Positions 363 to 15,679 of a stretch of DNA of 15,679 bases are shown piece after piece. The stretch comes from Nitrospinota bacterium. Lineage in GTDB: Bacteria; 2-12-FULL-45-22; JACOWJ01. Location of the stretch: contig JACOWJ010000041.1 of the NCBI GenBank assembly GCA_016176845.1, forward strand, positions 1-15,679, given 5' to 3'. The position numbers were made by a program, and so were the translations under genes. A model generated the notes under the pieces. That model saw nothing but the letters and a program-made list of their open reading frames with translations, had not been told where the DNA came from and did not search any database. Numbering within the stretch: position 1 is the stretch's first letter; each line of letters begins with the position of its first letter.

Positions 363-390
363 TCTGCGATGAACTTATTCCCTACTTTTC

Positions 391-1623: not shown

Positions 1624-1773
1624 AGCTCGTAGCTCATAGCTCATAGCCACTAGAACTTAGATTCCTCGCTTGGCTCGGAATGACAGCCGCACAACCTGTC
1701 ATTCCGAAGGAGCGATAGCAACTGAGGAATCCGAACAAATGGAAATTCCGGCTATCGAGCTATGAGCTATGGA
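1624..1773. repeat. Heptamer-phased inverted repeat enclosing REP copy B
   Basis: The left arm (1624-1649) is AGCTCGT then AGCTCAT twice. The right arm (1751-1773) carries the complementary heptamer AGCTATG twice. Both have an exact 7-bp period. Family-1 REP copy B (1653-1749) lies between the arms. The left arm starts 3 bp after the stop of the first CoA-transferase, so the structure could act as a terminator or mRNA end, although no U-tract follows. Confidence 0.8.
1653..1749. repeat. REP-like inverted repeat, family 1, copy B
   Basis: Same outer and inner arms as copy A at 245-362 (ATTCCTCGCTTGGCTCGGA, TGTCATTCCGAAGGAG, GAGGAATC, AAATGGAAATTCC), but without the nested palindrome. It is framed by the heptamer arms at 1624 and 1751. 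Confidence 0.8.
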
Positions 1774-1813
1774 CTGGCGACCAAATAACTTTCCCATGGT
1801 CGAATGGGATAAT

Positions 1814-1869
1814 AGGTTTTAAGTTTTAGGTTTTAGGGCTTAAAACTTAAAACCTAAAACCTAAAACTT
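1814..1869. repeat. Heptamer-phased inverted repeat at the start of the OYE gene
   Basis: Consecutive units AGGTTTT, AAGTTTT, AGGTTTT, the linker AGGG, then CTTAAAA twice, CCTAAAA twice and a final CTT. The two halves are complementary, so the array forms a long A/T-rich hairpin. Its last bases are part of the TTG used as the next gene's start, and one unit supplies the in-frame TAA at 1862-1864. Confidence 0.85.
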
Positions 1870-3004
1870 GCTGGAGGTCAAGAACCGGGTGGCTTATGCC
1901 CCCACCGGGAAAGCCCATTTCACCAAGGATGGGGACATGACCGATCAGGCCCTCTGTTACTATGTGGCCCGGGCCAAAGGGGGAACCGGCCTGATCGTCG
2001 TCGAGGTCTGCCTCCCGGTGGCAAAGTACGCCCGCCCGGTAAGACGGATCCTGGGCTGCTGGGATGATTCACAACTGGGCGGGCTGAAGGACCTGGCCGA
2101 TGCCGTCCACATGGCCGGCGCCAGGGTGGTCGTCCAGGAGACTCTGGGCTTCGGCAGCCAGGCGATGTTCCCCGTCGAGGGAGAGGTGGTGGCCCCCTCG
2201 GAAGTCCCCAGCGCCATCCGCAAGGGGACCGCACCCCGAAATCTGCAGTACATGGAGGGCGTGACCGGGGTGACCCCCAGGCCCCTGAAGCGGGAGGAGA
2301 TCGAGGAGATGGAGGAGGCCTTCGTCGCCGGGGCGCTGCGGCTCCAGAAGGCCGGGTTCGATGGAATCGAGCTCCATGGCTGCCACGGCTACCTGATCGC
2401 AGAGTTCCTCTCTCCCTACAGCAACCACCGGCAAGACGAGTACGGCGGCTCCTTCGATGGCCGGATGCGGTTGGCGCTCAACCTCCTGCGGAAGACCCGC
2501 GAGAAGGTGGGCCCCGACTTCGTGATCGGCTTCCGGATGAGCGGGGATGAGCACCTCGAAGGGGGTTACACCCTGGAGGATGGGCAGAGGATCGCCCGGG
2601 AGCTGGAGCGGGCGGGCGTCGATTACATTCATCTCTCCTCCGGGCGGTACGAGGCCTGGAACCGCATGCTCCCAGATGAGGAGGGGACGATGCTGGAGGA
2701 GGCGAAGGCGATCAAGCAGGCCGTCCAGATCCCGGTCATCTGCCCGAATATCCACGATCCCCTGACGGGGGAGCGGGCCCTGCGGGAAGGGATGACGGAT
2801 ATGATCTCCCTCTCCCGCGGCCTGATCGCCGACCCTGCCTGGGCCAACAAGGCCAGGGAGGGTCGGATTAGCGAGATCAAGCGGTGCATCCTCTGCAACA
2901 CCTGCCTGAAGGTCCTGTTCGGCGGATTTACCATCCGCTGCGCCGTTAACCGCGAGGTCGGCTGGGAACGGTTTAACCCCGAGTATTTCCCCGGCCGGCG
3001 ATAA
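1868..3004 (+). CDS. Old Yellow Enzyme-family flavin/Fe-S oxidoreductase, N-terminus truncated
   Basis: 378 residues of the FMN-binding TIM barrel found in 2-enoate and 2,4-dienoyl-CoA reductases. Recognisable parts are VKNRVAYAP at the N-terminus, the active-site histidines His170 and His173 in ELHGCHGYL, the following FLSPYSNHR and YGGS, and four cysteines (340, 343, 346, 358) placed as for a 4Fe-4S cluster. The C-terminal FAD/NAD domain of full dienoyl-CoA reductases is absent; the protein ends about 20 residues after the last cysteine. Family members usually have 15-20 residues (including an IGxLxLKN strand) before this point. Here the frame opens at a TTG inside a heptamer repeat, with TAA directly upstream and no ribosome site. 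GTG at 1889 is another possible start. It likely reduces an enoyl-CoA or enoate, if functional. Confidence 0.85.
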   Translation: MLEVKNRVAYAPTGKAHFTKDGDMTDQALCYYVARAKGGTGLIVVEVCLPVAKYARPVRRILGCWDDSQLGGLKDLADAVHMAGARVVVQETLGFGSQAMFPVEGEVVAPSEVPSAIRKGTAPRNLQYMEGVTGVTPRPLKREEIEEMEEAFVAGALRLQKAGFDGIELHGCHGYLIAEFLSPYSNHRQDEYGGSFDGRMRLALNLLRKTREKVGPDFVIGFRMSGDEHLEGGYTLEDGQRIARELERAGVDYIHLSSGRYEAWNRMLPDEEGTMLEEAKAIKQAVQIPVICPNIHDPLTGERALREGMTDMISLSRGLIADPAWANKAREGRISEIKRCILCNTCLKVLFGGFTIRCAVNREVGWERFNPEYFPGRR

Positions 3005-3025
3005 CTTTTCGAAAGGGGGGGGAAG

Positions 3026-4267
3026 ATGAGAAAGGAAGAGTTCTATGCGGAGGCGATCCCGAACTCGGTCGGCCCCCTGGAGGGGGTGAAGATCCTGGAG
3101 GCTACCCAGAACTACGCCGGCCCCAACGCGGGAACGGTGCTGGTGGACCTGGGGGCCGAGTCCGTCAAGATCGATATGCCGGGCTTTGGCGACCTGGTGC
3201 GTCATGCCCCACCCTTCATCGAGAGCCGCTCCGAGCTGGACCGCGGCGCCCAGCACCTCTCGATCAACCGCAACAAGAAGAACATCACCCTGAACTTAAA
3301 ATCTCCCAAGGGGAGAGAGATCTTCCTGGAGCTGGCCAAACGGGTCGATATCGTCATCGAGAATTTCAAACCGGGCACGATGGAGAAGTGGGGGTTGGGA
3401 TACCCCGAGGTCCGCCGGTCCAAACCCGATATCATCTATACCTCCGTCTCCGGATACGGCCAGTTCGGTCCTTACTCCCATCGGCCCAGTTACGACGCCG
3501 TAGCCCAGGCGGTGGGGGGATTGATGAGCGTCAACGGATACCCGGACCGCCCCCCCACCCGCACGGGCAACGGGCTGGGGGACAGCCTGGCCGGCTGGCA
3601 GGGGGCCCTGGCCAGCCTGGCGGCGCTCCACTACCGCAATCGCACCGGCCGGGGACAGCACGTCGACATCTCCCAGGTGGACACCATCCTATACACCAGC
3701 GACTTCGGCATCCTGGCGGCGGCCAACGCCGACTACCACTGGAAGCGGATGGGCAGCGAGAACCCGATGGTGGCCCCCTATAATGCATACGAGTGCAAGG
3801 ACGGCTACGTCTTCATCGGGATCGCCCTGGACGCCCATTGGGCCCGATTTTGTCAGATCATAGGGCGGGAGGATTTGATCAGCGACCCCCGCACCAAGGC
3901 CCTGGCCGATCGCGCCAAGAGTCGCGAGCTGGTCAACGGGGCAATCACCGCATGGACCAAGACGAAGCTCGTCGGGGAGGTGGTCGATGCCCTGGATGAG
4001 GCCCAGCTGGTGGTGGCCCCCATCCTTGACTTTCACCAGATCCTGGAGGATCCCCACATCCGGGAGCGAGACATGGTGGCCGAGGTGGAGCACCCGGCTG
4101 CCGGAAAGCTCAAGATCTATGGCGTGGCCGCCAAGTTCTCTGCCACGCCGGCGCGGGTCCGAATGCCCGCCCCCATGATGGGTCAGCACAACCAGGAGAT
4201 CTACGGGAGCTGGATGGGATACAGCCCTGAGCAGATCGATCAACTCAGGGAAGAAGGAGTCATCTAG
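3026..4267 (+). CDS. Second class III (CaiB/BaiF family) acyl-CoA transferase
   Basis: 413 residues with the same layout as the 406-1620 protein: VKILEATQNYAGPNAG, GAESVKID, VIENFKPGTMEKWGLGY, SGYGQFGPY, and the predicted catalytic Asp186 in GLGDSLAGW. It ends with GQHNQEIYG, typical of the family. A G-rich ribosome site lies at 3015-3023 before the ATG, and only 21 bp separate it from the OYE gene, so these two are very probably co-transcribed. Both transferases keep the nucleophilic Asp, so either could be active alone. A BbsEF-like pairing is possible but cannot be shown. The acid substrate is unknown. Confidence 0.93.
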   Translation: MRKEEFYAEAIPNSVGPLEGVKILEATQNYAGPNAGTVLVDLGAESVKIDMPGFGDLVRHAPPFIESRSELDRGAQHLSINRNKKNITLNLKSPKGREIFLELAKRVDIVIENFKPGTMEKWGLGYPEVRRSKPDIIYTSVSGYGQFGPYSHRPSYDAVAQAVGGLMSVNGYPDRPPTRTGNGLGDSLAGWQGALASLAALHYRNRTGRGQHVDISQVDTILYTSDFGILAAANADYHWKRMGSENPMVAPYNAYECKDGYVFIGIALDAHWARFCQIIGREDLISDPRTKALADRAKSRELVNGAITAWTKTKLVGEVVDALDEAQLVVAPILDFHQILEDPHIRERDMVAEVEHPAAGKLKIYGVAAKFSATPARVRMPAPMMGQHNQEIYGSWMGYSPEQIDQLREEGVI

Positions 4268-4297
4268 AGCGCATAGAAAGAGTTCATTACCGATCAA

Positions 4298-4349
4298 AGG
4301 TTTTAGGTTTTAGGTTTTAAGTGTTAAGTTTTAAAGGTTTTAAGACTTA
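4298..4349. repeat. Heptamer array, one-armed
   Basis: AGGTTTT three times, then AAGTGTT, AAGTTTT and a decayed unit. The unit is the same as in the 1814-1869 array but only one orientation is present, so no long hairpin forms. It begins about 30 bp after the stop of the second CoA-transferase. Confidence 0.75.
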
Positions 4350-4386
4350 GGCGATTTCTTAAAAAGAAAATCCCTATATTGTGTAG

Positions 4387-4447
4387 ATTGCTTCGCTTCG
4401 CTCGCAATGACAGAATATTGGGTCATTGCGAGGAGCGTCAGCGACGA
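4387..4447. repeat. REP-like inverted repeat, family 2, fused to the crotonase gene
   Basis: The left arm GATTGCTTCGCTTCGCTCGC then AATGACA is answered by GTCATTGCGAGGAGCGTCAG then CGACGA. Family-2 repeats normally continue into GAAGCAATC, as the copy at 12649-12717 does. Here that end is missing and the sequence runs straight into the crotonase coding frame. Confidence 0.8.
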
Positions 4448-5178
4448 CCCTGAACCGGCCCCAGGCCCTCAACGCCGTGAACAGCAAGCTGCACACCGAG
4501 CTGGCCCAGATCTTCGCCGATGTCCAGTGGGACGAGGAGGCGAACGTGGTCGTCCTGACCGGGGCGGGCCGGGCCTTCTCGGCGGGCGGCGATATTAAAT
4601 GGATGGAAGAGATGGCCAAACCGGCCACGCTGCAGACGGTCCTGTGGGAAGGGAAAAAGATCATCAACGACCTGCTGGAGCTGGAGAAGCCGATCATCGC
4701 CAAGGTCAACGGCGCCGCCACGGGATTGGGGGCGACCATCGCCCTCTTTTGCGACATCATCATCTCCTCGACCGAGGGGAAGTTCGCCGATCCCCATGTC
4801 AAGGTGGGGGTGGGGGCGGGAGACGGCGGGGCGGTCATCTGGCCGCTGCTCATCGGGGTCTGTAAGGCCAAGGAGCTGCTGATGACGGGCGACCTGATCG
4901 GCGCCGAGGAGGCCGAGCGGATCGGCCTGATCAACCGGGTGGTGCCCCCCGATAAGCTGGACGAGACGGTCCAGCAGATGGCCACCCGCCTGGCCAACGG
5001 GGCTATCCGCGCCATCCGGGCCACCAAAGTCTCCGTCAACAAGCTCCTGAAGGCCAACGCAAACCTGATCCTGGACGCCTCGCTGGCCCTTGAGGGCCAT
5101 TGCTTCAACACCGAGGATCACCGGGAGGCAGTCCGGGCCTTCATCGAGAAGCGCCAGCCTCGATTCACGGGAAAGTAA
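4426..5178 (+). CDS. Crotonase-fold (enoyl-CoA hydratase/isomerase family) protein, N-terminus replaced by a repeat
   Basis: 250 residues in the longest frame. Family signatures are TLNRPQALNAVN (8-19), the oxyanion-hole region AFSAGGDIKWM (50-60) and VNGAATGLGATIALFCD (94-110), then AGDGGAVIWP (131-140). The two glutamates of classical enoyl-CoA hydratase (Glu144 and Glu164 in the rat enzyme) align with Thr104 and His124, while Asp133 sits in the AGDGG motif. It therefore belongs to a GDGG subgroup whose reaction may not be simple hydration. Family members have about 15 residues before TLNRP. Here those codons are replaced by a REP arm, the only upstream start is a TTG (4426) with no ribosome site, and TGA at 4408-4410 closes the frame. 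Either the gene uses a weak start or it is decaying. Confidence 0.82.
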   Translation: MRGASATTLNRPQALNAVNSKLHTELAQIFADVQWDEEANVVVLTGAGRAFSAGGDIKWMEEMAKPATLQTVLWEGKKIINDLLELEKPIIAKVNGAATGLGATIALFCDIIISSTEGKFADPHVKVGVGAGDGGAVIWPLLIGVCKAKELLMTGDLIGAEEAERIGLINRVVPPDKLDETVQQMATRLANGAIRAIRATKVSVNKLLKANANLILDASLALEGHCFNTEDHREAVRAFIEKRQPRFTGK

Positions 5179-5210
5179 CTTGATCGCAGGAATTTCCATT
5201 TTCATAGAAG

Positions 5211-5253
5211 AACCCCCCCCATCCCCCCCTTTCGAAGGGGGGGCAAGGGGGGG
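5211..5253. repeat. C-tract/G-tract inverted repeat
   Basis: Two C-runs (5213-5229) face two G-runs (5237-5253) around TTTCGAA, giving a very stable hairpin. It lies between the crotonase stop and the MaoC ribosome site. Repeats of this type (C7-AT-C7) are common dispersed intergenic elements. It could weaken read-through within the operon, but no U-tract follows. Confidence 0.75.
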
Positions 5254-5277
5254 TAATTTAACAAGGAGGGGGAGATC

Positions 5278-6285
5278 ATGAGCGCAAAGTTTCAATACTT
5301 CGAGGACTACCAGGTAGGACAGGAGGGAGTGACCGGAACCCGGACCGTAGGCGCGCCCGATATCGTGGCCTTCGCCTGCCTGACCTGCGATTACGCACCC
5401 GTCCATATCGACCGGCATTTGACGGCCAGCGGCCCTTACGGGGGGAGGATCGCCCACGGCCTGCTGGGCTCTTCGCTGGTCACGGGGCTCCTATCCCTTT
5501 ACGCACCGCAGATCGTGGGGCGGGGCGTCCCCGAGTCCTATCTTTACAGCTTCGATACCAACTACCGCGGGGCGATCGCCATAGACGACACCATCAAGAT
5601 CCGCTGGCGGGTGGCCGAGAAAAAGGACGACCCCGACCAGCCCGGCTTCGGCTTTATCGCGACCGCCTTCGAGGTGGTCAACCAGGAGGAGCGATCCATC
5701 TACGAGGGGACGGTGGCCACCAAGGTCCGCAAGCAGGCCGCCCAGGGAGAGCGGCTGCAGTTTAAGACGCCAAAGCCCTGGCAGGTCCGTCCGCTCGTCA
5801 TCGACCCCGAGAAAATCTATTGCCTGGAGGACTTCATCGAGGGCGAGGGCGAGGTCATGGCCGGCCGCACCTTCACCGAGGCGGACGTGGTGAACTTCAT
5901 GGGACTCTCGGGCGACTACAATCCCCTCTACGCCGATGCGGTCTACGCCAGAGAGAGCACCTTCGGGGAGCGGATCGTCCCCGGGATGCTCGCCTTCACC
6001 GCGACCTTCGGCTTCTGGGCCCGGGACGGGGCCCTGACCACGGCCAAGAGTCCCGGAGCGGCCACCGAGGCCGGCCACCTGAACGATGGAGCCACCTTCC
6101 TGGCGCCGGTCAAGATTGGCGACACCCTCCGCTGCACTTACAAAGTGGCAGAGACCCGGGTCTCCCGCACCAAGCCCGACCGCGGCGTACTCAAGTTCGG
6201 CTTCCAGATGATCAACCAGCGAAACGAGGTGGTCCAGGAGGGCCAGACCCTGATGATGCGGGGAACGCGGGCTACCTTGCGCTGA
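5278..6285 (+). CDS. Tandem hot-dog MaoC-like dehydratase/hydratase
   Basis: 335 residues made of two hot-dog domains (about 1-160 and 185-335). MaoC-type (R)-specific hydratases use an Asp-x4-His pair. The first domain keeps it (Asp38 and His43 in CDYAPVHID, followed by GGRIAHG). In the second domain the matching site is Asp213 and Tyr218 (GDYNPLYAD), so the catalytic His is lost and only the N-terminal half should be active. The size resembles mesaconyl-CoA/beta-methylmalyl-CoA hydratases, but that function is not shown. The start is secure: AGGAGG at 5264-5269, 8 nt before the ATG. It is followed after 18 bp by the radical SAM gene, probably in one transcript. It likely adds or removes water on a CoA-bound acyl group in the cytoplasm. 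Confidence 0.88.
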   Translation: MSAKFQYFEDYQVGQEGVTGTRTVGAPDIVAFACLTCDYAPVHIDRHLTASGPYGGRIAHGLLGSSLVTGLLSLYAPQIVGRGVPESYLYSFDTNYRGAIAIDDTIKIRWRVAEKKDDPDQPGFGFIATAFEVVNQEERSIYEGTVATKVRKQAAQGERLQFKTPKPWQVRPLVIDPEKIYCLEDFIEGEGEVMAGRTFTEADVVNFMGLSGDYNPLYADAVYARESTFGERIVPGMLAFTATFGFWARDGALTTAKSPGAATEAGHLNDGATFLAPVKIGDTLRCTYKVAETRVSRTKPDRGVLKFGFQMINQRNEVVQEGQTLMMRGTRATLR

Positions 6286-6303
6286 GAGGAGAGGAGAAGG
6301 AAT

Positions 6304-7392
6304 ATGACCAGGGCGGCCTTTTGCGATACCGGGATCTTTCGCAAGGATGGTATCTTCTACCGGATGCTGACCAATCCCGAGCGGGAGTCGTTCGTCCAGA
6401 ACAACCTCCCCTATCACATCACCTTCGAGCTGACCAGCAAGTGCCACGGCAGCTGTGCCTATTGCTACAACAGCTCCGACGAAGTCACCGACTATTTCCT
6501 GCCCCCCGAGCGGGTCTATCGGCTGGTGGACGAGGCCAAAGAGATCGGCCCCCGGATGATCATCTGGCACGGGGGCGACCCCCTGCTTCATCCCCAATGC
6601 TTCGACTTCATGCGCTACTCCACCGACCAGGGCTTCCAGAACATGATGGTCTTGAACCCCATGATGAGCAAGCAGGTGGCCAAACAGATCTGCGATTGCC
6701 AGGTCGATATGGTCACCATGCACATCGATACCATCGACCAGGAGGCTTACAACCAGGTCCACACCAATCCCAAGACCCTGGAGGCCAAGGTCCAGGGCTA
6801 CCGCAACCTCCTGGAGGCCGGCTTCCCCCCGCAGAACGTGGCCGGGATCCTGACGCTGACCCGCCCCATGCTCCACACCATCTCCGAGACCGTGGATTGG
6901 TTCGTCCACCAGATGGGGGCCAGCTTCGTCTGCTTCGAGATCTTCCGGGCGGAGGGGTTCGGCAAGGGCCATTACGAGTGGGAGCCCAGCCTCTCCGAGC
7001 TGAAGAAGGCCTACGAGGACCGGGCGCGGGTCCTGGGGGACATGGACCTGTTGCGGATGGGGACGATGGACATCAGCCGAGATGCCTGCAAGAGCCACTT
7101 CGTGGTCACCTATGAGGGCCAGGTCAAGCCCTGCGTTTTCATGGTGGGGCTCTCGCTGGGCAACATCTACCAGGAGGGGCTGGTGGACCTTTTCCACAAG
7201 CACCGAGACCGGCTCTTGTATAACTTCGATGTCAAGGGCTACTGCGGCGAGGAGTGCGAAAATCGAGGGGTATGCTGGGGCTGCCGGGCGGTAACGTACT
7301 ATTACACCGGAGACGTCCAGGCCTCGGACCCCAAGTGCTGGTGGAACCCGGACAACAGCGACTACTTCTTCCAGGCATCCAATAATAGCTAA
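6304..7392 (+). CDS. Radical SAM protein with SPASM-like C-terminal domain
   Basis: 362 residues. The radical SAM 4Fe-4S motif C-x3-C-x2-C is Cys47, Cys51 and Cys54 (CHGSCAYC), preceded by the strand HITFELTSK. The SAM-binding GGDP motif is present (HGGDPLL). The C-terminal third is cysteine-rich: GQVKPC, then CGEEC, GVCWGCRA and PKCWW. This resembles the SPASM domain, which holds extra Fe-S clusters in enzymes that modify peptides or haem precursors. No precursor peptide was found next to it, and the neighbours are acyl-CoA enzymes, so its substrate is unknown. A purine-rich ribosome site (about 6286-6300) precedes the ATG. It closes the left gene cluster. Confidence 0.88.
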   Translation: MTRAAFCDTGIFRKDGIFYRMLTNPERESFVQNNLPYHITFELTSKCHGSCAYCYNSSDEVTDYFLPPERVYRLVDEAKEIGPRMIIWHGGDPLLHPQCFDFMRYSTDQGFQNMMVLNPMMSKQVAKQICDCQVDMVTMHIDTIDQEAYNQVHTNPKTLEAKVQGYRNLLEAGFPPQNVAGILTLTRPMLHTISETVDWFVHQMGASFVCFEIFRAEGFGKGHYEWEPSLSELKKAYEDRARVLGDMDLLRMGTMDISRDACKSHFVVTYEGQVKPCVFMVGLSLGNIYQEGLVDLFHKHRDRLLYNFDVKGYCGEECENRGVCWGCRAVTYYYTGDVQASDPKCWWNPDNSDYFFQASNNS

Positions 7393-7396
7393 AGAA

Positions 7397-7500
7397 GGCA
7401 AAATGAAAAATGCAAAGTGCAAAATGCAAAGTGAAAACCAAAGGACAACAAGTCTTTCATTTTGTACTTTTCATTTTTCATTTTGCATTTTGCATTTGGC
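7397..7500. repeat. Heptamer-phased inverted repeat between convergent genes
   Basis: The left arm (7397-7439) has 7-bp units such as AAATGAA, AAATGCA, AAGTGCA, AAATGCA and AAGTGAA. The right arm (7451-7500) has TTTCATT, TTGTACT, TTTCATT twice and TTGCATT twice. The arms are largely complementary around a spacer of about 11 bp. The position between two converging genes would suit a two-way transcription terminator. Confidence 0.85.
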
Positions 7501-7503
7501 ACG

Positions 7504-7519
7504 AACCGGCTACCCCGGT
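7504..7519. terminator. Small hairpin downstream of dtd
   Basis: AACCGG, a 4-base loop and CCGGTT form a perfect 6-bp stem 14 bp beyond the dtd stop. No clear U-run follows on the minus strand, so termination is only a possibility. Confidence 0.3.
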
Positions 7520-7532
7520 TCTTCAGATCTCT

Positions 7533-7982
7533 TCAAAATAGCTTGCGGCTGTCTAACATCAGGGTCACGGGCCCATCGTTGACCGAGGCGACCTCCATCA
7601 TGGCCTGAAACCGCCCGCAGGCCGTGGTGATCCCCTGCCGGCGGGCCTCAACGATGAAGGAAAGATAGAGATCCTCGGCCAGCGCAGGAGGCGCCGCATC
7701 GGTGAAGGAAGGCCTTCGGCCTTTGCGGCAGTCGCCGTACAGGGTGAATTGGGAGATCACCAGCAGGGAGCCCCCCGTCTCCCGGAGGGAGAGGTTCATC
7801 TTCCCCTGGGAGTCCTGAAAGATGCGCAATTCGATCACCTTGGAGAGCAGGTAATCCACGTCCTCCCGCGTATCCTCCTTTCCCACCCCCAGGTACACCA
7901 AAAGCCCCGGTCCGATCTCCCCGCAGCTCTCCCCTTCCACGGTGACTCGGGCCCATTTGACTCGCTGGACGACCACCCTCAT
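7533..7982 (-). CDS. dtd: D-aminoacyl-tRNA deacylase
   Basis: The enzyme hydrolyses D-amino acids mistakenly attached to tRNA, a cytoplasmic proofreading step. The chosen start gives MRVVVQRV and 149 residues, the usual DTD length. An in-frame ATG 21 bp upstream (8001-8003) is less likely, because AAGGAG lies between the two, 9 nt before the chosen ATG. Family motifs are SQFTLYGD in the middle and NDGPVT near the C-terminus, where Gly-Pro is the Gly-cisPro chiral selector. The protein ends MLDSRKLF, as is common in the family. It faces away from ccmE and toward the radical SAM gene, so it is a separate unit with its own promoter. Confidence 0.95.
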   Translation of the reverse strand: MRVVVQRVKWARVTVEGESCGEIGPGLLVYLGVGKEDTREDVDYLLSKVIELRIFQDSQGKMNLSLRETGGSLLVISQFTLYGDCRKGRRPSFTDAAPPALAEDLYLSFIVEARRQGITTACGRFQAMMEVASVNDGPVTLMLDSRKLF

Positions 7983-8025
7983 GCTTTTTTTCTCCTTATT
8001 CATGAATTCATGACGGTTTGGGGCT

Positions 8026-8055
8026 ATTATACCCCAGCCGGTCTCCCGAGGGCAA
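8026..8055 (-). promoter_or_regulatory. Candidate sigma-70 promoter of dtd
   Basis: On the minus strand a perfect TATAAT (8026-8031) is preceded, after 18 bp, by TTGCCC (8050-8055). Transcription would start near 8018, about 36 nt before the dtd start codon. Confidence 0.55.
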
Positions 8056-8057
8056 AC

Positions 8058-8074
8058 GGCGGCCGTATGCCGCC
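8058..8074. promoter_or_regulatory. Palindrome between two divergent promoters
   Basis: GGCGGC, CGTAT, GCCGCC: a perfect 6-bp stem. It lies just behind the dtd -35 box and just before the candidate ccmE -35 box, a good place for a shared operator. On + a T-rich stretch follows at 8080-8090, so a terminator-like role cannot be excluded. Confidence 0.35.
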
Positions 8075-8081
8075 AGAGATT

Positions 8082-8110
8082 TTGCTTTTTAAACGGTTTT
8101 GTGCTAACAT
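8082..8110 (+). promoter_or_regulatory. Candidate promoter of the ccm operon
   Basis: TTGCTT (8082-8087), a 17-bp spacer and TAACAT (8105-8110). The match to sigma-70 boxes is moderate. The start point would be near 8117, leaving a leader of about 54 nt that contains the 8128-8159 hairpin. Confidence 0.45.
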
Positions 8111-8127
8111 TTTTTCCGAATTTTTTC

Positions 8128-8159
8128 GCCCATCTGGTTTCCTTTCGAATCAGATGGGC
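8128..8159 (+). promoter_or_regulatory. Hairpin in the ccmE leader
   Basis: GCCCATCTG and CAGATGGGC are perfect 9-bp arms around a 14-base loop. The right arm ends one base before the ccmE ribosome site (GGAGG, 8161-8165). This would suit control of translation or mRNA protection. It does not belong to any of the repeat families seen elsewhere in the window. Confidence 0.5.
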
Positions 8160-8170
8160 TGGAGGCTCGC

Positions 8171-8598
8171 TTGATCAAACCCAAAAAGACCCGCTTCATC
8201 ATAGGAGGATTGTTGATCGTCGGGACATTGGTTTACCTGGGCTACAGTGGGATGCAGGGATCCATGGTCTATTACCTGACGGTGAACGAACTGATGGCCA
8301 GGGCCGCGGCCGATCACTCCATTTACGGAGAAGGGGTACGGGTATCGGGAAAGGTGGTTAGCGGCTCTATCGAACGGGACAGCATGGCGAGAGAGATCAA
8401 GTTCAAGATCATCGATAACCAAGGGAACGGCGGGAAGCTCCTCCCCGTTTTTTATCGAGGGACACCGCCCGATCTTTTCAAAAACGGCGTGGATGTAGTC
8501 GTAGAAGGGGAATATACCCGAGATGGCACCTTCCTGGCCAAGACCCTGCTGACCAGCTGCCCCTCTAAGTACGAACCGGCCAAGGGAGAGAAGGCCGA

Positions 8599-8602: not shown

Positions 8603-10602
<2,000 letters not shown>

Positions 10603-10609
10603 TCGTATC

Positions 10610-10680
10610 GGAATCCAGTTTTTTAAAGCTGGATTCCCGCTGGAGTTTACCCCGCACTTGATGCGGGGCGGGAATGACAG
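10610..10680. repeat. REP-like double hairpin, family 3
   Basis: The first hairpin has GGAATCCAG (10610-10618) against CTGGATTCC (10629-10637). The second has CCCCGCA (10650-10656) against TGCGGGG (10662-10668), nested in TTCCCGC and GCGGGAATGACA. This is a common dispersed repeat type. It starts 8 bp after the ccmF stop and runs to the beginning of the next gene. Confidence 0.8.
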
Positions 10681-10693
10681 TTTTGGATTTCTT

Positions 10694-11152
10694 ATGACCC
10701 TTTTCATGACCATCCTGCTGGCCGCAAGTGCGGCCTTCTTCGTTGGGTTCCCCTTCTGGCAGAAGGGCCTGGAGGAAGAGATCCCCCAAGCCCCCCCAGG
10801 GGAAGCGGGCTTCTCCGCCTTGTTGAGCCGAAAGGAGGAGGCCTACCGGACTATCAAGGAATTGGAGTTGGATCACCAAATGGGAAAGCTATCGGACGAG
10901 GATTACCGGGAGCTGAGCCAGCGGTATAAGGCGGTGGCCCTGGGGATCCTGAAGGAGATCGATCAGAGGTATGGAGGCGTGAAAACGATCGAGGAAGAGA
11001 TCGAGGAGGAGATCCTGGAGCTCCGCCGTCGCCGCCGGCTGGCCCCGAAGGAGAAGTCGGCAGAAAGAAGTTCGTTCTGCACCCAGTGTGGGGCCCAGCT
11101 GCAGCCGGCTGACCGGTTCTGCGGTCGGTGTGGACAGAGGGTGGAGCAATAA
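10694..11152 (+). CDS. Small membrane-anchored zinc-ribbon protein of the ccm operon
   Basis: 152 residues from the chosen ATG: a membrane segment (about 1-20), a charged helical region with ELELDHQMGKLSDEDYREL (47-90), an acidic coiled coil (about 97-112), a basic run (RRRRR) and a C-terminal zinc ribbon with Cys129, 132, 143 and 146 (CTQCG...CGRCG). The helical part resembles the N-terminal module of CcmI-like proteins (ELDxxxGxLSxxDY), a family recognition rather than a computed match. It sits where ccmG or ccmH genes are found in other operons. The frame is open upstream to a TTG at 10658, but those codons belong to a repeat; ATG 10694 or 10706 is more likely, though neither has a clear ribosome site. 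The function is unknown; an accessory role in cytochrome c assembly is inferred from position. Confidence 0.78.
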   Translation: MTLFMTILLAASAAFFVGFPFWQKGLEEEIPQAPPGEAGFSALLSRKEEAYRTIKELELDHQMGKLSDEDYRELSQRYKAVALGILKEIDQRYGGVKTIEEEIEEEILELRRRRRLAPKEKSAERSSFCTQCGAQLQPADRFCGRCGQRVEQ

Positions 11153-11212
11153 GCGATGAGGAAACGCACTGATCCTATGTACCGCTCCACAGAAAAAGGA
11201 TTCCAAATAAAC

Positions 11213-11236
11213 CGCAGAGGCGCAGAGGCGCAGAGG
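11213..11236. repeat. Short tandem repeat, 8-bp unit
   Basis: CGCAGAGG three times in a row, preceded by AACC. Arrays of this kind are common dispersed intergenic repeats in many bacteria. It lies in the 214-bp gap between the zinc-ribbon and beta-sandwich genes. Confidence 0.7.
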
Positions 11237-11262
11237 AAAAACTTTGCGATAAGTGGGACCTT

Positions 11263-11366
11263 TGATACGAAAATAGCCCCTCACCCCAACCCTCTCCCCC
11301 GAAGGGAGAGGGAGCCTCACAGGCCATTTTCATGGGCTTGGGTGTCCCAAGGGGCATGGATGATTA
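11263..11366. repeat. Family 4 repeat, uninterrupted copy
   Basis: It begins TGATACGAAAAT and contains CCCCTCACCCCAACCCTCTC facing GAGAGGGAG. It continues CCATTTTCATGGGCTTGGGT and ends at GGATGATTA. The copy at 15052-15314 has the same landmarks but is split by an inserted element. This copy ends directly at the TTG used as the next start codon. Confidence 0.85.
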
Positions 11367-12617
11367 TTGGCCGGCTTATGGCTCCCTTCTTATTCCTTTG
11401 CCCAGGGGATCATCGAAGGAAAAGTGATCAACGGGACCTTCCCGGATCGGCCGGTCTCGGTCCCGGAAGTTGCCTTATACCGCCAACAGGGGAACCAGCC
11501 GCCGGAGAAGCTGTCCAGCCAGCCAACCCCCGAGGGGCATTATCGCTTCGAAGGGGTCCCCCCGGACCCTCAGGTCCGCTATCACCTCGCCACAACCTAC
11601 CAGGGAATCCTCCAATATGGAGAGGAGATCACCTTCGAGGCTGGCCATCCTCCTGCCCTGGGGTCCCCCCAAACTGCTCCTGGAAGTAGGGGCGGTTCGC
11701 CAATCACCCCTGCTGTGCCCGAAAAAGCCGAATCTCCGGGTAAGCCGCTCAAAACTTCCGATCTGAAGGTTTACGAGGTGACCGCCGATGCAGGGCAGCT
11801 TTCGGTTTCCCGGGCCCACATCATCCTGGACGTCATGGGCCAGGAGCTAACCGTCACGGAGTTTATGATTCTGGAGAACCCGGGGAACCGGGCGGTTTGG
11901 GGCAAGAAGCTGCTGCGCTTCAGCCTGCCCGCCGGAGCCCAGGGCTTTCAGGGCCCTGGAGAGCTGACCAACGAGGCCGCAGGCGGGGCAGGAGGCTTCT
12001 GGCTGTTGGAGCCGATCCCTCCCGGACAAAAGCAGTTGCTGTACGGATATAGCCTCCCCTACTCCGGGAAGGGACAGGACTTCCAGCGCCGCATCGATCT
12101 CCCGACGACCCAATTGGATGTGTTGGTTGCCGACAAGGGTCTCGAGGTCTCCAGTCCGAGCCTCTCCTTCCAGGGGCCGGTGGATATGGGAAACAACCAA
12201 AAATTCCTGCGCTGGTCGGCAACCGGCCTGCGACCGGCCACCCTGATCGGCTTGCAGTTCCAGGCCGCTGGATCGACCGGCCGGGTTTTTAAAGGGGGAG
12301 CGATCGCCGTCGTCCTCCTGCTCGTCGTAGGGGGGTTCGCTTATCCCTTCGTACGGGGCCGACGGGCCGGCCGACCCGGATCGTCCCCTCCCTCTGCCCA
12401 AACTTCTGGAGCCGCAAAAGAGGGGATGGCCCCCCTGAAGCGGGAGCGGAGGAGACTCCTGGAGACGATCGCCGACCTGGATGACCGTTACGAAGCCGGG
12501 GAGATCACCGAGGCCGAACACCGCCGGTCCAGGGAGCCCAAGTTTCAGCAGCTGGTGGAGATCACCACGAGGTTGAGGAAAGATGCCAAAGGCCGAACCG
12601 ACAAGGCGAGAGGCTAG
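11367..12617 (+). CDS. Secreted beta-sandwich membrane protein of the ccm operon, start damaged
   Basis: 416 residues. They run as follows: the end of a signal peptide (LWLPSYSFAQ, cleavage near residue 13), a domain like the carboxypeptidase-regulatory beta-sandwich (about 14-92), a linker rich in Pro and Gly, a second beta-rich domain (about 130-300), one membrane helix (309-329) and a cytoplasmic charged helix. That helix contains LDDRYEAGEITEAEHRR (371-387), similar in pattern to the zinc-ribbon neighbour. The frame opens at a TTG exactly where a family-4 repeat ends, with an in-frame TGA at 11361-11363. The first half of the signal peptide is therefore missing. An ATG with GGAG upstream at 11156 encodes MRKR, which would suit a signal-peptide start, but it is one frame off. 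The function is unknown; a periplasmic role in cytochrome assembly is inferred from position. Confidence 0.75.
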   Translation: MAGLWLPSYSFAQGIIEGKVINGTFPDRPVSVPEVALYRQQGNQPPEKLSSQPTPEGHYRFEGVPPDPQVRYHLATTYQGILQYGEEITFEAGHPPALGSPQTAPGSRGGSPITPAVPEKAESPGKPLKTSDLKVYEVTADAGQLSVSRAHIILDVMGQELTVTEFMILENPGNRAVWGKKLLRFSLPAGAQGFQGPGELTNEAAGGAGGFWLLEPIPPGQKQLLYGYSLPYSGKGQDFQRRIDLPTTQLDVLVADKGLEVSSPSLSFQGPVDMGNNQKFLRWSATGLRPATLIGLQFQAAGSTGRVFKGGAIAVVLLLVVGGFAYPFVRGRRAGRPGSSPPSAQTSGAAKEGMAPLKRERRRLLETIADLDDRYEAGEITEAEHRRSREPKFQQLVEITTRLRKDAKGRTDKARG

Positions 12618-12761
12618 TACAGCTTGGCGCAAGTTTCTCGCTGGTTTAGATTGCTTCGTCGCTTGCGCTCCTCGCAATGACCTGACCTTGTCATTGCGAG
12701 CGAAGCGAAGCAATCCCCAGCAAGCGAGAACCAGCAAATCATTTCCGCCGATGTGTACTAG
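12614..12761. repeat. MITE-like inverted repeat with CTAGTACA ends, containing a family-2 REP
   Basis: CTAGTACA (12614-12621) and TGTACTAG (12754-12761) are perfect 8-bp ends. Further in, GGCG and GCTGGTT also recur in inverted order. The centre (12649-12717) is a family-2 REP with ATTGCTTCG arms. The left end supplies the TAG stop of the preceding gene. Confidence 0.7.
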
Positions 12762-12897
12762 AGAGGGGCTCCAGGAGCGCCAAGAAGTCAAGGCTCAAGG
12801 CTTTGAGCTCGGGGATGGGGGTTCGCCCCGCGAAATAGGGTCCTCCCCGGCCCCAGCCGTTTCAGCCCTGGGGTCTCCCCCGGACTCGGAACGGAGC
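12762..12897. other. Gap before ccmA
   Basis: I see no gene here. The frame of ccmA stays open through this stretch, but the encoded residues (rich in Pro, Ser and Gly) do not look like an ABC ATPase and the stretch is not conserved with the family. No clear promoter was found. Confidence 0.5.
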
Positions 12898-13623
12898 ATG
12901 GATTGGGCCATCCAGGTGGAGCAGCTTACCAAGTCCTTCGGTCATCTACTGGCCTTGCGGGGGATCGACCTGCGGCTCCGGCGAGGAAAGTTTCTCACCA
13001 TCTTCGGGCCCAACGGGGCGGGAAAGACCACGCTCATCCGGATCCTCTCCACCTTGCTGCGGCCCACCGCCGGCCGGATCGAGATCTTAGGGATGGACCT
13101 GCGAGATGCAGGAGAAGAGATTCGCCGTCAAATCGGGGTCCTCTCCCACCAGACCTTCCTCTATAACAACCTGACCCCTATGGAAAACCTGAAGTTCTAT
13201 GGGACCCTGTATGGGCTGGATCATCTGAAGGAGCGAATCGAGCTCCTATTGGAGCAGGTGGGGCTGGAGGGAAGGAGAAATGACCCTGTGCGGACCTTCT
13301 CTCGGGGGATGCAGCAACGGTTGGCCATCGCCCGCACGTTGCTCCACGATCCCCAGGTGGTCTTCCTGGATGAACCCTATACCGGCCTCGACCAGCACGC
13401 CGCCCGGATGCTGGAGGGGCTCTTGGGGCAGATGCGCAGCGGCCAACGGACGATCCTCCTGGTCACCCACAACCTGGCCCGGGGCCTGGGGATGGGCGAC
13501 GAGGTAGCCATTCAGGTCGGGGGAAGGATCCTTTACCGGGAGGAGCGAGGAAAGATCGATCCGGCCAGCTTCGAGGAGCGGTACTTTCACTGCGTGGAGG
13601 AGGGACCCGCATGGGATTCCTGA
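12898..13623 (+). CDS. ccmA: Haem-exporter ABC ATPase CcmA
   Basis: 241 residues. CcmA is the ATPase of the CcmABCD complex and powers release of haem-loaded CcmE. ABC motifs in order are Walker A GPNGAGKT (37-44), Q-loop region SHQTFLYNN (83-91), signature FSRGMQQR (134-141, a CcmA-like variant of LSGGQ), Walker B VVFLDEP (154-160) and the H-loop His191 in LVTHN. The start ATG gives MDWAIQVEQLTKSFG, the expected N-terminus; the only purine run, GGAG at 12893, is too close to the ATG to be a good ribosome site. The last codons overlap an ATG at 13611, the first of two near-identical ccmB starts. Confidence 0.95.
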   Translation: MDWAIQVEQLTKSFGHLLALRGIDLRLRRGKFLTIFGPNGAGKTTLIRILSTLLRPTAGRIEILGMDLRDAGEEIRRQIGVLSHQTFLYNNLTPMENLKFYGTLYGLDHLKERIELLLEQVGLEGRRNDPVRTFSRGMQQRLAIARTLLHDPQVVFLDEPYTGLDQHAARMLEGLLGQMRSGQRTILLVTHNLARGLGMGDEVAIQVGGRILYREERGKIDPASFEERYFHCVEEGPAWDS

Positions 13624-13706
13624 TACGGCTGCGGGCGGCAAAGGGCCAGGCTGGAGCCTGGCGATCCCGGGAGGGGGCGGCATGGGATTCCTGATACAGC
13701 TGCGGG
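13609..13706. repeat. Duplicated ccmB start with a repeat between the copies
   Basis: GCATGGGATTCCTGATAC plus GGCTGCGGG at 13609-13635 recurs at 13680-13706 with one mismatch (CAGCTGCGGG), an offset of 71 bp. The DNA between (about 13636-13679) contains CAGGCTGGAGCCTG and TCCCGGGA, resembling the palindromic repeat at 15130-15185. Confidence 0.85.
13611..13694 (+). CDS. 27-residue remnant ORF created by the ccmB start duplication
   Basis: It starts MGFLIRLR, the ccmB N-terminus, runs through the inserted repeat and stops at a TGA inside the second copy. It overlaps ccmA by 13 bp and ccmB by 13 bp. The purine run GGAGGAGGGA lies a few bases before its ATG, so it may be translated, perhaps only to pass ribosomes from ccmA to ccmB. 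It has no recognisable domain. Confidence 0.4.
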   Translation: MGFLIRLRAAKGQAGAWRSREGAAWDS

Positions 13707-14359
13707 TCTTGCTCTGGAAGGACCTGCTTTCGGAACTGCGCGGCAAAGAGCTGATCTCGATGATGGCCTTCTTCGGCCTGCTGGTGTTGGTGATCTTCAA
13801 CTTCGCCTTCGAGCCCGGCTCGGCCGAGGCCGCTCACCTGGGCTCTGGGATCCTCTGGGTGGCCTTCACCTTCGCGGGGGTCCTGGGCCTGAACCGCTCT
13901 TTCTTGCTGGAAAAGGAGAGCGAAGGACTCCAGGGGCTGTTGCTCTCTCCGGTCGATCGAGGGGTCCTCTACCTGGGGAAGCTGGGGGGAAACTTCCTCT
14001 TTATGCTCCTGGTAGAGGCCTTGATCCTGCCCTTCTTTGCCCTGTTTTTCAACCTGGACCTGTGGCTCCTGCTGCCTCAGCTCGCCCTGGTTGCGATTCT
14101 GAGCACGCTGGGGTTTACTGCCGTGGGGACGCTCTTCGCCGCCATGTCCGCACAGGCCAAGAGCCGGGAGTTGCTCCTGCCTACGCTGCTGTTGCCCATT
14201 GTGGTCCCGGTGATCGTGGCCGCCGTGAAATCTACCGGCCAAATCCTGGAAGGCCGGCCCCTGGCCGAAGTCGCCCAGTGGCTGAAGCTCTTGCTGGCCT
14301 TCGATCTTTTGTACCTGGTCGTCTCCTTCCTGATCTTCGAATACGTCGTGGAAGAGTGA
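13682..14359 (+). CDS. ccmB: Haem-exporter membrane subunit CcmB
   Basis: 225 residues with about six membrane helices (roughly 26-43, 51-72, 100-123, 130-152, 163-182, 203-221), the usual CcmB size. It is the membrane partner of the CcmA ATPase. The family motif NRSFLLEKESEGLQGLLLSP (71-90) follows the second helix. The start at the second of two duplicated sites gives MGFLIQLRVLLWKDLLSELR, the expected amphipathic N-terminus; the first copy leads into a different frame and stops. A G-rich run precedes the ATG. ccmC begins 7 bp after the stop. Confidence 0.94.
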   Translation: MGFLIQLRVLLWKDLLSELRGKELISMMAFFGLLVLVIFNFAFEPGSAEAAHLGSGILWVAFTFAGVLGLNRSFLLEKESEGLQGLLLSPVDRGVLYLGKLGGNFLFMLLVEALILPFFALFFNLDLWLLLPQLALVAILSTLGFTAVGTLFAAMSAQAKSRELLLPTLLLPIVVPVIVAAVKSTGQILEGRPLAEVAQWLKLLLAFDLLYLVVSFLIFEYVVEE

Positions 14360-14366
14360 GTTCCCC

Positions 14367-15026
14367 ATGAACAAACTGAGTGACCTGGTCTCCCGGATTT
14401 CGGCCGCGCTGGCGTCGGTTTTCACCTTCGTGGCCCTCTACGCGATCTTCATCGTTGTCCCCCCCGAGCAGAAGATGGGGATCATCCAGAAGATCTTTTA
14501 TTTCCATGTGCCGGCAGCCTGGATCTCCTTCCTCTCCTTCGGCGTGGTTTTCGTGGCGAGCATTCTCTACTTGTGGAAACAGGAGGAGCGGTACGACCAG
14601 CTGGCCCATGCCTCGGGCGAGATCGGGCTGGTCTTCTGTACGCTGGTCCTGATCACCGGTCCCATTTGGGGGAGGCCGGTCTGGGGGGTCTGGTGGACCT
14701 GGGATTCGCGGCTGACCACTACGCTGGTCCTGTGGCTGATCTACGTGGCCTACCTGATGGTGCGGGCTTACGGAGGAAACCGGGGGCCTCGATACGGGGC
14801 CGTGTTGGGGATCGTAGGGTTTCTGGACGTCCCCATCGTCTATTTCTCCATCCGCTGGTGGCGCACCATCCACCCCCCTCCCGTGACCCTGGCCCCCTCC
14901 ATGGTGGTGACGCTGTTAATCTCGCTGGTGGCATTTACCCTCCTCTATCTCTGCCTGCTCCTCCAAAGGGTGGCTCAGGAGCGCATGAAAGACGAGATCG
15001 ATTGGCTGAAGCGGCAGGAAAGATAG
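14367..15026 (+). CDS. ccmC: Haem-handling membrane protein CcmC
   Basis: 219 residues with six membrane helices. CcmC binds haem at the outer face of the membrane and attaches it to CcmE. The WWD motif is WGRPVWGVWWTWDSRLT (101-117) and the two conserved haem-ligand histidines are His47 (FYFHVPAAW) and His169 (RTIHPPP). The start is 7 bp after ccmB, indicating one transcript. The protein is close to the size of E. coli CcmC (about 245) but lacks its extra C-terminal tail. It is followed by a heptamer array. Confidence 0.96.
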   Translation: MNKLSDLVSRISAALASVFTFVALYAIFIVVPPEQKMGIIQKIFYFHVPAAWISFLSFGVVFVASILYLWKQEERYDQLAHASGEIGLVFCTLVLITGPIWGRPVWGVWWTWDSRLTTTLVLWLIYVAYLMVRAYGGNRGPRYGAVLGIVGFLDVPIVYFSIRWWRTIHPPPVTLAPSMVVTLLISLVAFTLLYLCLLLQRVAQERMKDEIDWLKRQER

Positions 15027-15050
15027 GGATTAGGGATTAGGGATTAGGGG
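15024..15050. repeat. Heptamer array after ccmC
   Basis: TAGGGAT units repeat about three and a half times in exact 7-bp register and run directly into the family-4 repeat. The array overlaps the stop codon of ccmC. No opposite arm is seen next to it. Confidence 0.8.
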
Positions 15051-15051
15051 G

Positions 15052-15314
15052 TGATACGAAAATGCCCCCTCACCCCAACCCTCTCCCCAAGGGGAGAGGG
15101 AGCATTCGTGTCAACTTAAGGTTGAGTCCTGGGAGCGCGGCCATCCTGGCCGCTCTTTGCCGGCGAGGACGCCGGCGTTCCCAGGGGTTAAGTTGACACG
15201 AATGGCCGGCGAGGACGCCGGCGTTCCCAGGGGTTAAGTTGACACGAATGGGAGAGGGAGTGTCGTAAGCCATTTTCATGGGCTTGGGTGCTCCAGGGGC
15301 GCATGGGGGATTAG
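15052..15314. repeat. Family 4 repeat, copy interrupted by a small element
   Basis: It has the same ends and landmarks as 11263-11366: TGATACGAAAAT, CCCCTCACCCCAACCCTCTC, GAGAGGGAG, CCATTTTCATGGGCTTGGGT and GGGGATTA. A 148-bp element (15103-15250) separates two copies of GGAGAGGGAG. Confidence 0.85.
15103..15250. mobile_element. MITE-like element with 17-bp perfect terminal inverted repeats
   Basis: The ends CATTCGTGTCAACTTAA (15103-15119) and TTAAGTTGACACGAATG (15234-15250) are perfect inverted repeats. Direct repeats GGAGAGGGAG flank it (15093-15102, 15251-15260), as a target duplication would. Inside is a palindromic GC-rich repeat (GGGAGCGCGGCCATCCTGGC, then GCCGGCGAGGACGCCGGC). A 46-bp unit is exactly doubled (15159-15204 and 15205-15250), so the ancestral element was probably 102 bp. 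It codes for nothing; any mobility would need a transposase from elsewhere. Confidence 0.8.
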
Positions 15315-15447
15315 TAAAAGGCAGCATGCCAATGGTTGATTCCGGTGTAAGAACCCCCTTTTGCGTTCATGAAGAGCTTCGAGATTCACATTATCGCAAA
15401 TAAGGCGATAGAAGTGCCATTACCCCTGCGGTTAAAGAGAGCGCACA
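15315..15447. other. Gap before ccmD
   Basis: I see no gene. A small hairpin, TATCGC (15392-15397) against GCGATA (15405-15410), lies about 40 bp before the ccmD start. Together with the repeats at 15024-15314 it separates ccmC from ccmD by 421 bp, unusual for genes that are normally adjacent. Confidence 0.5.
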
Positions 15448-15618
15448 ATGAAAAACTTCTGGTATCTTTTCAGCGCCTACACCATCATCTGGGCGGTCCT
15501 CTTCGGCTACCTTTTCAGCCTGATCCGGGCCAACCGGAACTTATGGAAGGAGCTGGAAGGGCTCAAGGGACGGGTCAGCACCCGAACATCCGAAGGGACT
15601 GGCAAAGTAAGGGGTTAG
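15448..15618 (+). CDS. ccmD: CcmD-like small membrane protein
   Basis: 56 residues, ATG to TAG. One membrane helix (about 5-25) is followed by a charged cytoplasmic helix (RANRNLWKELEGLKGR). FWYLFSAYTIIWAVLFGYLF closely follows the CcmD pattern (YW-x-FxAY-x-x-x-W-x-x-x-x-x-Y-x-x-S). CcmD holds CcmE in the CcmABC complex. Position after ccmC agrees, although repeats separate the two. The ribosome site is weak (AAAGAGAG upstream). The last few codons and the stop lie in a heptamer repeat, so the native C-terminus may have been altered. Confidence 0.85.
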   Translation: MKNFWYLFSAYTIIWAVLFGYLFSLIRANRNLWKELEGLKGRVSTRTSEGTGKVRG

Positions 15619-15679
15619 TAACGAGGGGCTAGGAGCTAGCGAAAACTCTTCTTACTAACCCCTAGCCCCTAATTCCTAG
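15611..15679. repeat. Heptamer-phased inverted repeat at the right edge
   Basis: The left arm (15611-15640) has GGGGTTA, GTAACGA, GGGGCTA and GGAGCTA. The right arm (15650-15679) has CTTACTA, ACCCCTA, GCCCCTA and ATTCCTA. The arms are largely complementary around a short A/T-rich loop. It may act as the end of the ccm transcript and may continue beyond the window. Confidence 0.8.

What the first reader, a model, noticed from the sequence alone, without database searches (positions are those of the whole stretch)
1624..15679. Six intergenic arrays share a strict 7-bp period but use different heptamers, mostly folded as hairpins
Arrays at 1624-1773 (AGCTCAT), 1814-1869 (TTTTAGG), 4298-4349 (TTTTAGG), 7397-7500 (AAATGCA), 15024-15050 (TAGGGAT) and 15611-15679 (GGGGCTA) keep a 7-bp register with drifting units. 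Four have complementary arms. A common period without common sequence points to a shared generating process rather than copying of one element. Heptamer STRR repeats of heterocystous cyanobacteria are the nearest known parallel; the inverted arrangement with varied units looks different. Function is unknown.
Basis: partly seen in the sequence, partly recalled or inferred. Interest (0 to 1): 0.8.

Follow-up and report, generated by a model that had tools for sequence, protein, structure and literature searches.

The report
Heptamer-armed palindromic mobile repeats
The 7-bp repeat arrays are real and fill over a quarter of the longer gaps between genes in this bacterium; most look like the arms of several families of small, probably selfish, hairpin-shaped repeat elements that were copied around the genome, while the reason for the shared length of 7 bp is still open.

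Summary
In 98.8% of the window's genome, 210 tandem arrays have period 7 (plus 25 with period 14 or 21); no other period exceeds 13, and shuffles give none. Nearly all fall into five heptamer classes. Same-class neighbours are almost always inverted, with fixed polarity (97 of 103). They occupy 29% of gaps of 60 bp or more, abut stop codons, and avoid promoter-type gaps.

Many arrays sit in recognisable dispersed elements: a MITE with TIRs and a 3-bp TWA duplication; a constant-core family; and a short element with one constant end (GGAAATTCCTATRCGAT) carrying exchangeable palindromes, heptameric or not. That end also occurs in Desulfobacterota, Latescibacterota and Cloacimonadota. On a constant core, arms differ by whole 7-bp units. 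In unrelated genomes period 7 also leads, with other units and without regular inverted pairing.

Best reading: slippage with a bias to 7-bp units builds and resizes arms; small palindromic mobile elements disperse them; selection leaves them in gaps. The 7-bp bias and the mobilising enzyme remain unexplained. New variant of a known kind.

The parts
249..370 (+). Constant-end ('box') element with non-heptameric palindromic cargo (GGAATGACA type): starts TTAGATTCC, ends GGAAATTCCTCTGCGAT, flanked by GAAC on both sides (245-248, 371-374)
1624..1647 (+). Class C heptamer arm (AGCTCRT), outer-to-inner orientation, 3 bp after the stop codon of a CoA-transferase III gene
1657..1757 (+). Diverged box-type element (TTAGATTCC ... 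GGAAATTCCGGCTATCGAG) lying between the two class C arms; probably a nested insertion
   Evidence: its palindrome recurs in about 15 places
1751..1771 (-). Class C arm, inverted partner
1768..1868 (+). MITE-A copy: left TIR 1768-1791, then TCCCATGGTCGAATGGGATAATA, then class A arms; right end missing
1816..1837 (+). Class A arm GTTTTAAGTTTTAGGTTTTAGG
1839..1867 (-). Class A arm CTTAAAACTTAAAACCTAAAACCTAAAAC (inverted partner)
4298..4349 (+). Class A array outside the MITE, no clear second arm
7400..7437 (+). Class B arm (AAAATGM/AAAGTGC) in a convergent gap, 7 bp after the stop codon of a radical SAM gene
7468..7501 (-). Class B arm, inverted partner; hairpin GAACCGGCTACCCCGGTTC follows 1 bp outside
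15024..15049 (+). Class D arm (TAGGGAT); its first TAG is the stop codon of the upstream cytochrome c assembly (CcmC-like) gene (14367-15026)
15611..15679 (-). Diverged class D element with both arms and core, in reverse orientation, cut by the contig end

Best explanation
Most of the arrays are the arms of small, non-autonomous, palindromic mobile elements, of several unrelated kinds, that were copied into intergenic gaps. SHOWN: arrays come in inverted pairs with one fixed polarity per class; classes A and D (and C, E in part) sit in dispersed repeats with conserved non-heptameric parts; one of these is a MITE with TIRs and a 3-bp TWA duplication; another has one constant end (AAAAATGGAAATTCCTATRCGAT, next to a YRARTTA-like target) and exchangeable palindromic cargo; on a constant core, arms differ by whole 7-bp units. 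INFERRED: the units are gained and lost by strand slippage (or unequal exchange) during replication, with a bias to 7 bp that also shows in unrelated bacteria; the palindromes matter to mobility (hairpins recognised in single-stranded DNA) and not to the host; position reflects tolerance, between stop codon and ribosome-binding site and away from promoters. NOT explained: why 7, and which enzyme moves the constant-end elements. Class B (outer C-TNC-G hairpins, variable cores) has the same architecture, but mobility is not shown for it.
For: Genome-wide period-7 excess. Polarity +- 97, ++ 3, -+ 2, -- 1. MITE-A: about 20 copies, TIRs; of 12 two-ended copies 10 have identical flanking 3-mers, 5 TAA/TAA and 5 TTA/TTA (Fisher exact 2/252 = 0.008 by hand); the same TIRs also enclose a GTAATC/GTGATC-type palindrome (2 copies), a GCGCCCTTCGCGGC palindrome (1) or no array (1). 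Class D: 23 pairs listed, most with core TAAGAAAGAAGAGCTTTTG and many with the same box on one side; left arms 18/25/32/39/60 bp, 25 of 27 equal 4 mod 7. End box: 68 of 121 exact boxes have an array within 60 bp versus 8.9% of random intergenic sites; arrays inside box elements: A 31/100, C 19/44, D 51/97, E 18/27, B 4/107; 20 of 147 are chained head to tail, 2.9 expected. Arm complementarity within a locus is no better than with swapped partners for A and D, as expected of family copies. Other genomes: period 7 leads in G066 and G094 (chosen for class B) and in contigs chosen only for the box.
Against: No empty sites could be compared: only one other genome of the phylum is held, from another family. 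No transposase was found next to the end box. Class B cores are mostly unique and only 36% of its arms have an outer hairpin. In class B, arms match better within a locus than across loci, which subclasses could explain but so could local copying. The 7-bp bias has no proven cause. The genome is a 68%-complete MAG and repeats are where assemblies break.
Confidence: 0.68

Rival explanations
1. A local generating process makes heptamer palindromes in place (slippage plus template switching at hairpins), with no transposition; similarity between loci is convergent.
For: Same period with many units in unrelated genomes; whole-unit length changes; class B pairs have mostly unique cores and match better within a locus.
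Against: Shared cores, shared ends and a MITE with a duplicated target; classes A and D show no within-locus advantage in complementarity; fixed polarity per class.
Confidence: 0.17
2. The arrays are functional RNA hairpins at gene ends (transcription terminators or mRNA stabilisers) kept by selection on the host.
For: Strong preference for gene 3' ends (median 19.5 bp from outer edge to stop); excess folding; rare in divergent gaps of 150-300 bp (2/27 against 76/203 in tandem gaps).
Against: As frequent in tandem as in convergent gaps, including between genes that look like one operon in the window; no Rfam match in the window; arms do not pair better with their own partner in A and D; unit numbers vary strongly.
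Confidence: 0.08
3. The arrays are binding sites or structural DNA (G-quadruplexes, a heptamer-binding protein) with a regulatory role, as proposed for GGGNATC and TAACTGA heptamers elsewhere.
For: Class D and E arms hold four or more GGG runs in 63/97 and 23/27 arrays; regulatory roles considered in PMC4692102 and PMC4679880.
Against: None of the 251 class A, B and C arrays has the four-GGG pattern; five unrelated units are hard to fit to one binding protein.
Confidence: 0.05

Closest known systems
Short tandemly repeated repetitive (STRR) and other heptamer arrays of cyanobacteria, Xanthomonas (GGGAATC) and Nostoc (GGGGAYT), Beggiatoaceae (TAACTGA), Geobacter (PMC4692102, PMC4679880, PMC2700814)
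   Same: Intergenic arrays of drifting 7-bp units, a few copies each, spread over the genome; some inverted pairs are noted in Xanthomonas and Nostoc
   Different: Here five classes in one genome, nearly always inverted with fixed polarity, and many embedded in identifiable dispersed elements
Small dispersed repeats of Nostoc (SDR; Elhai et al. 2008, from memory, paper not held in the library)
   Same: Very small dispersed elements associated with heptamer arrays and with minitransposons
   Different: Here the heptamers form the arms of the element; the reverse nesting is described there, as I remember it
MITEs (miniature inverted-repeat transposable elements)
   Same: MITE-A has TIRs, no gene and a 3-bp TWA duplication
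   Different: Its centre is an exchangeable palindrome that varies by 7-bp units; the constant-end elements have neither TIR nor TSD
REP / BIME / REPIN palindromes with RAYT transposases (PMC3733652, PMC3116915)
   Same: Small intergenic palindromes in high copy
   Different: No GTAG or CGTC tag noticed (not searched for systematically) and no Y1 transposase found in the incomplete genome
IS91/ISCR and Helitron-type rolling-circle elements
   Same: Asymmetric ends, no TIR, no TSD, hairpins, one constant end beside a preferred tetranucleotide (CAAG the commonest here, GAAC among the rest; CAAG/GAAC as IS91 target is from memory), variable other part
   Different: Target is looser (CAAG only 27 of 115), no transposase beside the box, only a remnant of Y2_Tnp in the own genome

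Membership tests
Heptamer tandem arrays (STRR-like, descriptive class) | Intergenic tandem arrays with 7-bp units, many loci | tested here: met
Heptamer tandem arrays (STRR-like, descriptive class) | Direct arrays without obligate inverted partner | tested here: not met
   97 of 103 same-class neighbours inverted
MITE (for the MITE-A element only) | Terminal inverted repeats, non-coding, many copies | tested here: met
MITE (for the MITE-A element only) | Target-site duplication | tested here: met
   10 of 12 two-ended copies identical, TAA and TTA both occur and covary (p about 0.008 by hand)
MITE (for the MITE-A element only) | Autonomous partner with the same TIRs | tested here: inconclusive
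   no TIR pair around a gene was recognised; about a third of the genome is missing
MITE (for the constant-end elements) | TIR and TSD | tested here: not met
   ends differ; left and right flanks do not covary (z 0.3-1.1 in four strata)
REP/RAYT system | Y1 (IS200/IS605-type) transposase in the genome | tested here: inconclusive
   none in a 68%-complete genome
IS91-type non-autonomous element | Y2 transposase in the same genome | tested here: inconclusive
   present in 6 of 10 box-bearing genomes, 0 of 14 controls; only a 26-residue remnant in the own genome
IS91-type non-autonomous element | Transposase gene bounded by the same constant end | tested here: not met
   no box within the loci held around those genes
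IS91-type non-autonomous element | Constant end abuts one fixed tetranucleotide | tested here: inconclusive
   consensus NRARTTA; CAAG 27, TAAA 14, CGAG 10, TGAA 9, GAAC 8 of 115
Structured regulatory RNA (Rfam) | Match to a curated RNA family | tested here: not met
   no match in the window

The most novel reading that the evidence does not exclude
A cross-phylum family of mini-elements with one constant end (GGAAATTCCTATRCGAT) takes up any palindrome as exchangeable cargo, chains head to tail at a YRARTTA site, and uses heptamer-built hairpins as replaceable recognition or termination stems of a single-strand (rolling-circle type) transposition; hairpin processing during that transposition would itself be the 7-bp generator.
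Probability: 0.2. Interest if true: 0.75.

Novelty: new variant of a known kind. Interest (0 to 1): 0.52.

Why it matters
The excess of 7-bp units in bacterial tandem repeats has been noted for years without a proven cause. This genome links it to palindromic mobile elements: same period, different sequences, different element backbones, and whole-unit length changes on constant cores. That separates the question of how arrays spread (mobile elements) from how they grow (a 7-bp step) and makes both testable. I found no description of the constant-end, exchangeable-cargo element, though I did not search the literature for its sequence; it occurs in several phyla.

Tried and rejected
Seven-bp target duplication as the source of the period: the constant-end elements show CAAGTTA-like 7-mers on both sides, but an unbiased permutation test shows no left-right covariation, so this attractive idea was dropped. 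G-quadruplex as common denominator: only classes D and E. Compensatory pairing of arms: not seen in A and D. Known RNA families: none in the window. Y1 transposase: not found. IS91 transposase flanked by the box: not found. Autonomous element bounded by boxes: none recognised. Exact MITE-A end in other named genomes: none. Sister-strain comparison: impossible, the phylum has two held genomes and the second has few heptamers.

Full report
WHAT WAS CHECKED. The window is one whole contig (G000:C47) of a 1.53-Mb, 68%-complete, 58% G+C draft genome in 61 contigs. I read 98.8% of that genome in pieces and scanned it for tandem periodicity of 2-40 bp. Period 7 gives 210 arrays (23 more at 14, 2 at 21); the next period, 8, gives 13. 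Three first-order Markov shuffles give none; in intergenic sequence alone 161 real period-7 arrays stand against a single array (of period 6) from three shuffles.

THE UNITS. At a lower threshold 399 arrays were used, and all but 24 belong to five classes, written in the outer-to-inner direction: A TKTTARG, B AAADTGN, C AGCTYRW, D YTAGGGR, E AYAGGGD. Arrays have a median of 4.4 units and reach 11.6; together they make 0.8% of the genome.

INVERTED PAIRS WITH FIXED POLARITY. Among same-class neighbours within 400 bp, 97 are +-, 3 ++, 2 -+ and 1 --. The class patterns carry their own strand, so this is a polarity rule and not a by-product of labelling. Arms of A and D are no more complementary to their own partner than to partners from other loci; for B they are (19.2 against 15.6). 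For A and D this fits families of copies more than local pairing or local copying.

WHERE THEY LIE. Using a simple codon-based gene caller (1353 genes, plausible calls throughout the window), 33 of 399 arrays lie mostly in called genes, and 29% of gaps of 60 bp or more hold one. Outer edges lie a median 19.5 bp from stop codons and 42 bp from start codons, with few within 12 bp of a start. In gaps of 150-300 bp, 76/203 tandem but only 2/27 divergent gaps have arrays. In 24 cases the stop codon is supplied by the array itself, as for the CcmC-like gene at 15024. This is what tolerance predicts: DNA between a stop codon and the next ribosome-binding site.

THREE BACKBONES. (i) MITE-A. The 1814-1869 array is inside a dispersed element with about 20 copies and terminal inverted repeats of the form TWAGGAMTGGYGACCRAATAACTT / TWAGGATCRTGGACTAAATAACTT. 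Of 12 copies with both ends, 10 have identical 3-mers outside, five TAA and five TTA, which I read as a real 3-bp duplication (p about 0.008 by hand). The same ends enclose heptamers in most copies, but a GTAATC/GTGATC-type palindrome in two, a GCGCCCTTCGCGGC palindrome in one and no array in one. (ii) Class D family. A core TAAGAAAGAAGAGCTTTTG is flanked by arms of varying length: left arms mostly 18, 25, 32, 39 or 60 bp, 25 of 27 equal to 4 mod 7; right arms most often 23, 30, 37, 44 or 51 (13 of 20). Arms thus change by whole units on a constant core. (iii) Constant-end elements. The end AAAAATGGAAATTCCTATRCGAT occurs over 100 times; 56% have an array within 60 bp against 8.9% of random intergenic sites. 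The cargo is class A, C, D or E heptamers, or non-heptameric palindromes such as the GGAATGACA type at window 249-370. Elements start YAARTTA (GAACTTA for the GGAATGACA type) and sit before a YRARTTA-like target; 20 of 147 are chained head to tail (2.9 expected). Left and right flanks do not covary, so there is no target duplication. The elements fold more strongly than shuffled sequence (median z -2.2 to -7.4 by cargo; control -0.5).

CLASS B is different: cores mostly unique, few in box elements (4/107), and in 36% of arms a small G+C-rich hairpin such as CTCGC-TTC-GCGAG just outside (5.7% in control gaps). The same architecture is clear; mobility is not shown.

OTHER GENOMES. Only one other genome of the phylum is held (G001, another family), with few period-7 arrays and other units. 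Of 145 genomes of as many families, 7 including the own one have the class B pattern and only the own genome class D. Two of these, G066 and G094, were read in part: period 7 leads there too (31 and 19 arrays against 10 and 8 at period 8), with many other units, but similar neighbours there are direct, not inverted (long arrays that turn around internally would be missed). Contigs fetched only for the end box, from Desulfobacterota, Latescibacterota, Cloacimonadota and an unclassified SZUA-191 bacterium, also show 13 period-7 arrays of about 27 with other units. A weak general excess of 7-mer tandem repeats is published: mean representation in mesophiles 0.19, 0.48 and 0.30 for units of 6, 7 and 8 bp (PMC4060949), and the polymerase-footprint idea is cited in PMC4692102.

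MECHANISM. I take the arrays to be products of two layers. Growth: slippage or unequal exchange with a step of 7 bp; the whole-unit changes are shown, slippage and its bias are inferred. Spread: palindromic non-autonomous elements; for MITE-A this is supported by inverted ends and a target duplication, for class D and the constant-end elements by shared non-heptameric sequence at many loci, while the enzyme is unknown. For the constant-end elements a single-strand mechanism of IS91 type (two distinct, structured ends, PMC13393415) would fit asymmetric ends, lack of inverted ends and duplication, hairpins and exchangeable cargo; Y2 transposases occur in 6 of 10 box-bearing genomes and 0 of 14 controls, but none has the box beside it, and the own genome has only a fragment. 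This remains a lead.

VERDICT. I rate it a new variant of a known kind.

Noticed in passing
window 1868-3004 and 4426-5178: Two genes (NADH:flavin oxidoreductase and enoyl-CoA hydratase) begin directly at the end of a repeat (truncated MITE-A; GCAATGACA-type palindrome) and seem to lack their first residues (the Pfam matches begin at profile positions 12 and 9): either deletions at the repeats or assembly joins.
   Followed up: partly
G000:C14:27979-28099, C56:89961-90105: MITE-A ends enclose a palindrome of GTAATC/GTGATC-type units, apparently with a 6-bp step, in place of heptamers.
   Followed up: partly
window 15159-15251: A 46-bp unit is repeated exactly twice in tandem (GCCGGCGAGGACGCCGGCGTTCCCAGGGGTTAAGTTGACACGAATG); similar sequence occurs elsewhere in the genome.
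   Followed up: no
window 15052-15100: ATGCCCCCTCACCCCAACCCTCTCCCCAAGGGGAGAGGG element, about 20 copies in this genome and about 25 in an unrelated one (G019), also in G001 and G006.
   Followed up: no
L234:5340-5503 (CP070843.1): Two 76-bp constant-end elements in head-to-tail order, each with two hairpins (TAAAATCGC..GCGATTTTA, GTCCGCC..GGCGGAC), in a Deltaproteobacteria MAG.
   Followed up: partly
G000:C61:66907-67035: A class C constant-end element lies inside the core of a class B pair, at a TAAATTA site: probably a nested insertion.
   Followed up: no
G066 loci L201-L210: Besides period 7, a period-8 family (CTTTGTGC/CTCTGTGC) recurs about ten times in 200 kb.
   Followed up: no
G000:C16:40674-40879: Run of ten N between two MITE-A hairpin copies: scaffolding gap at the repeat; several contigs also end in such arrays.
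   Followed up: no
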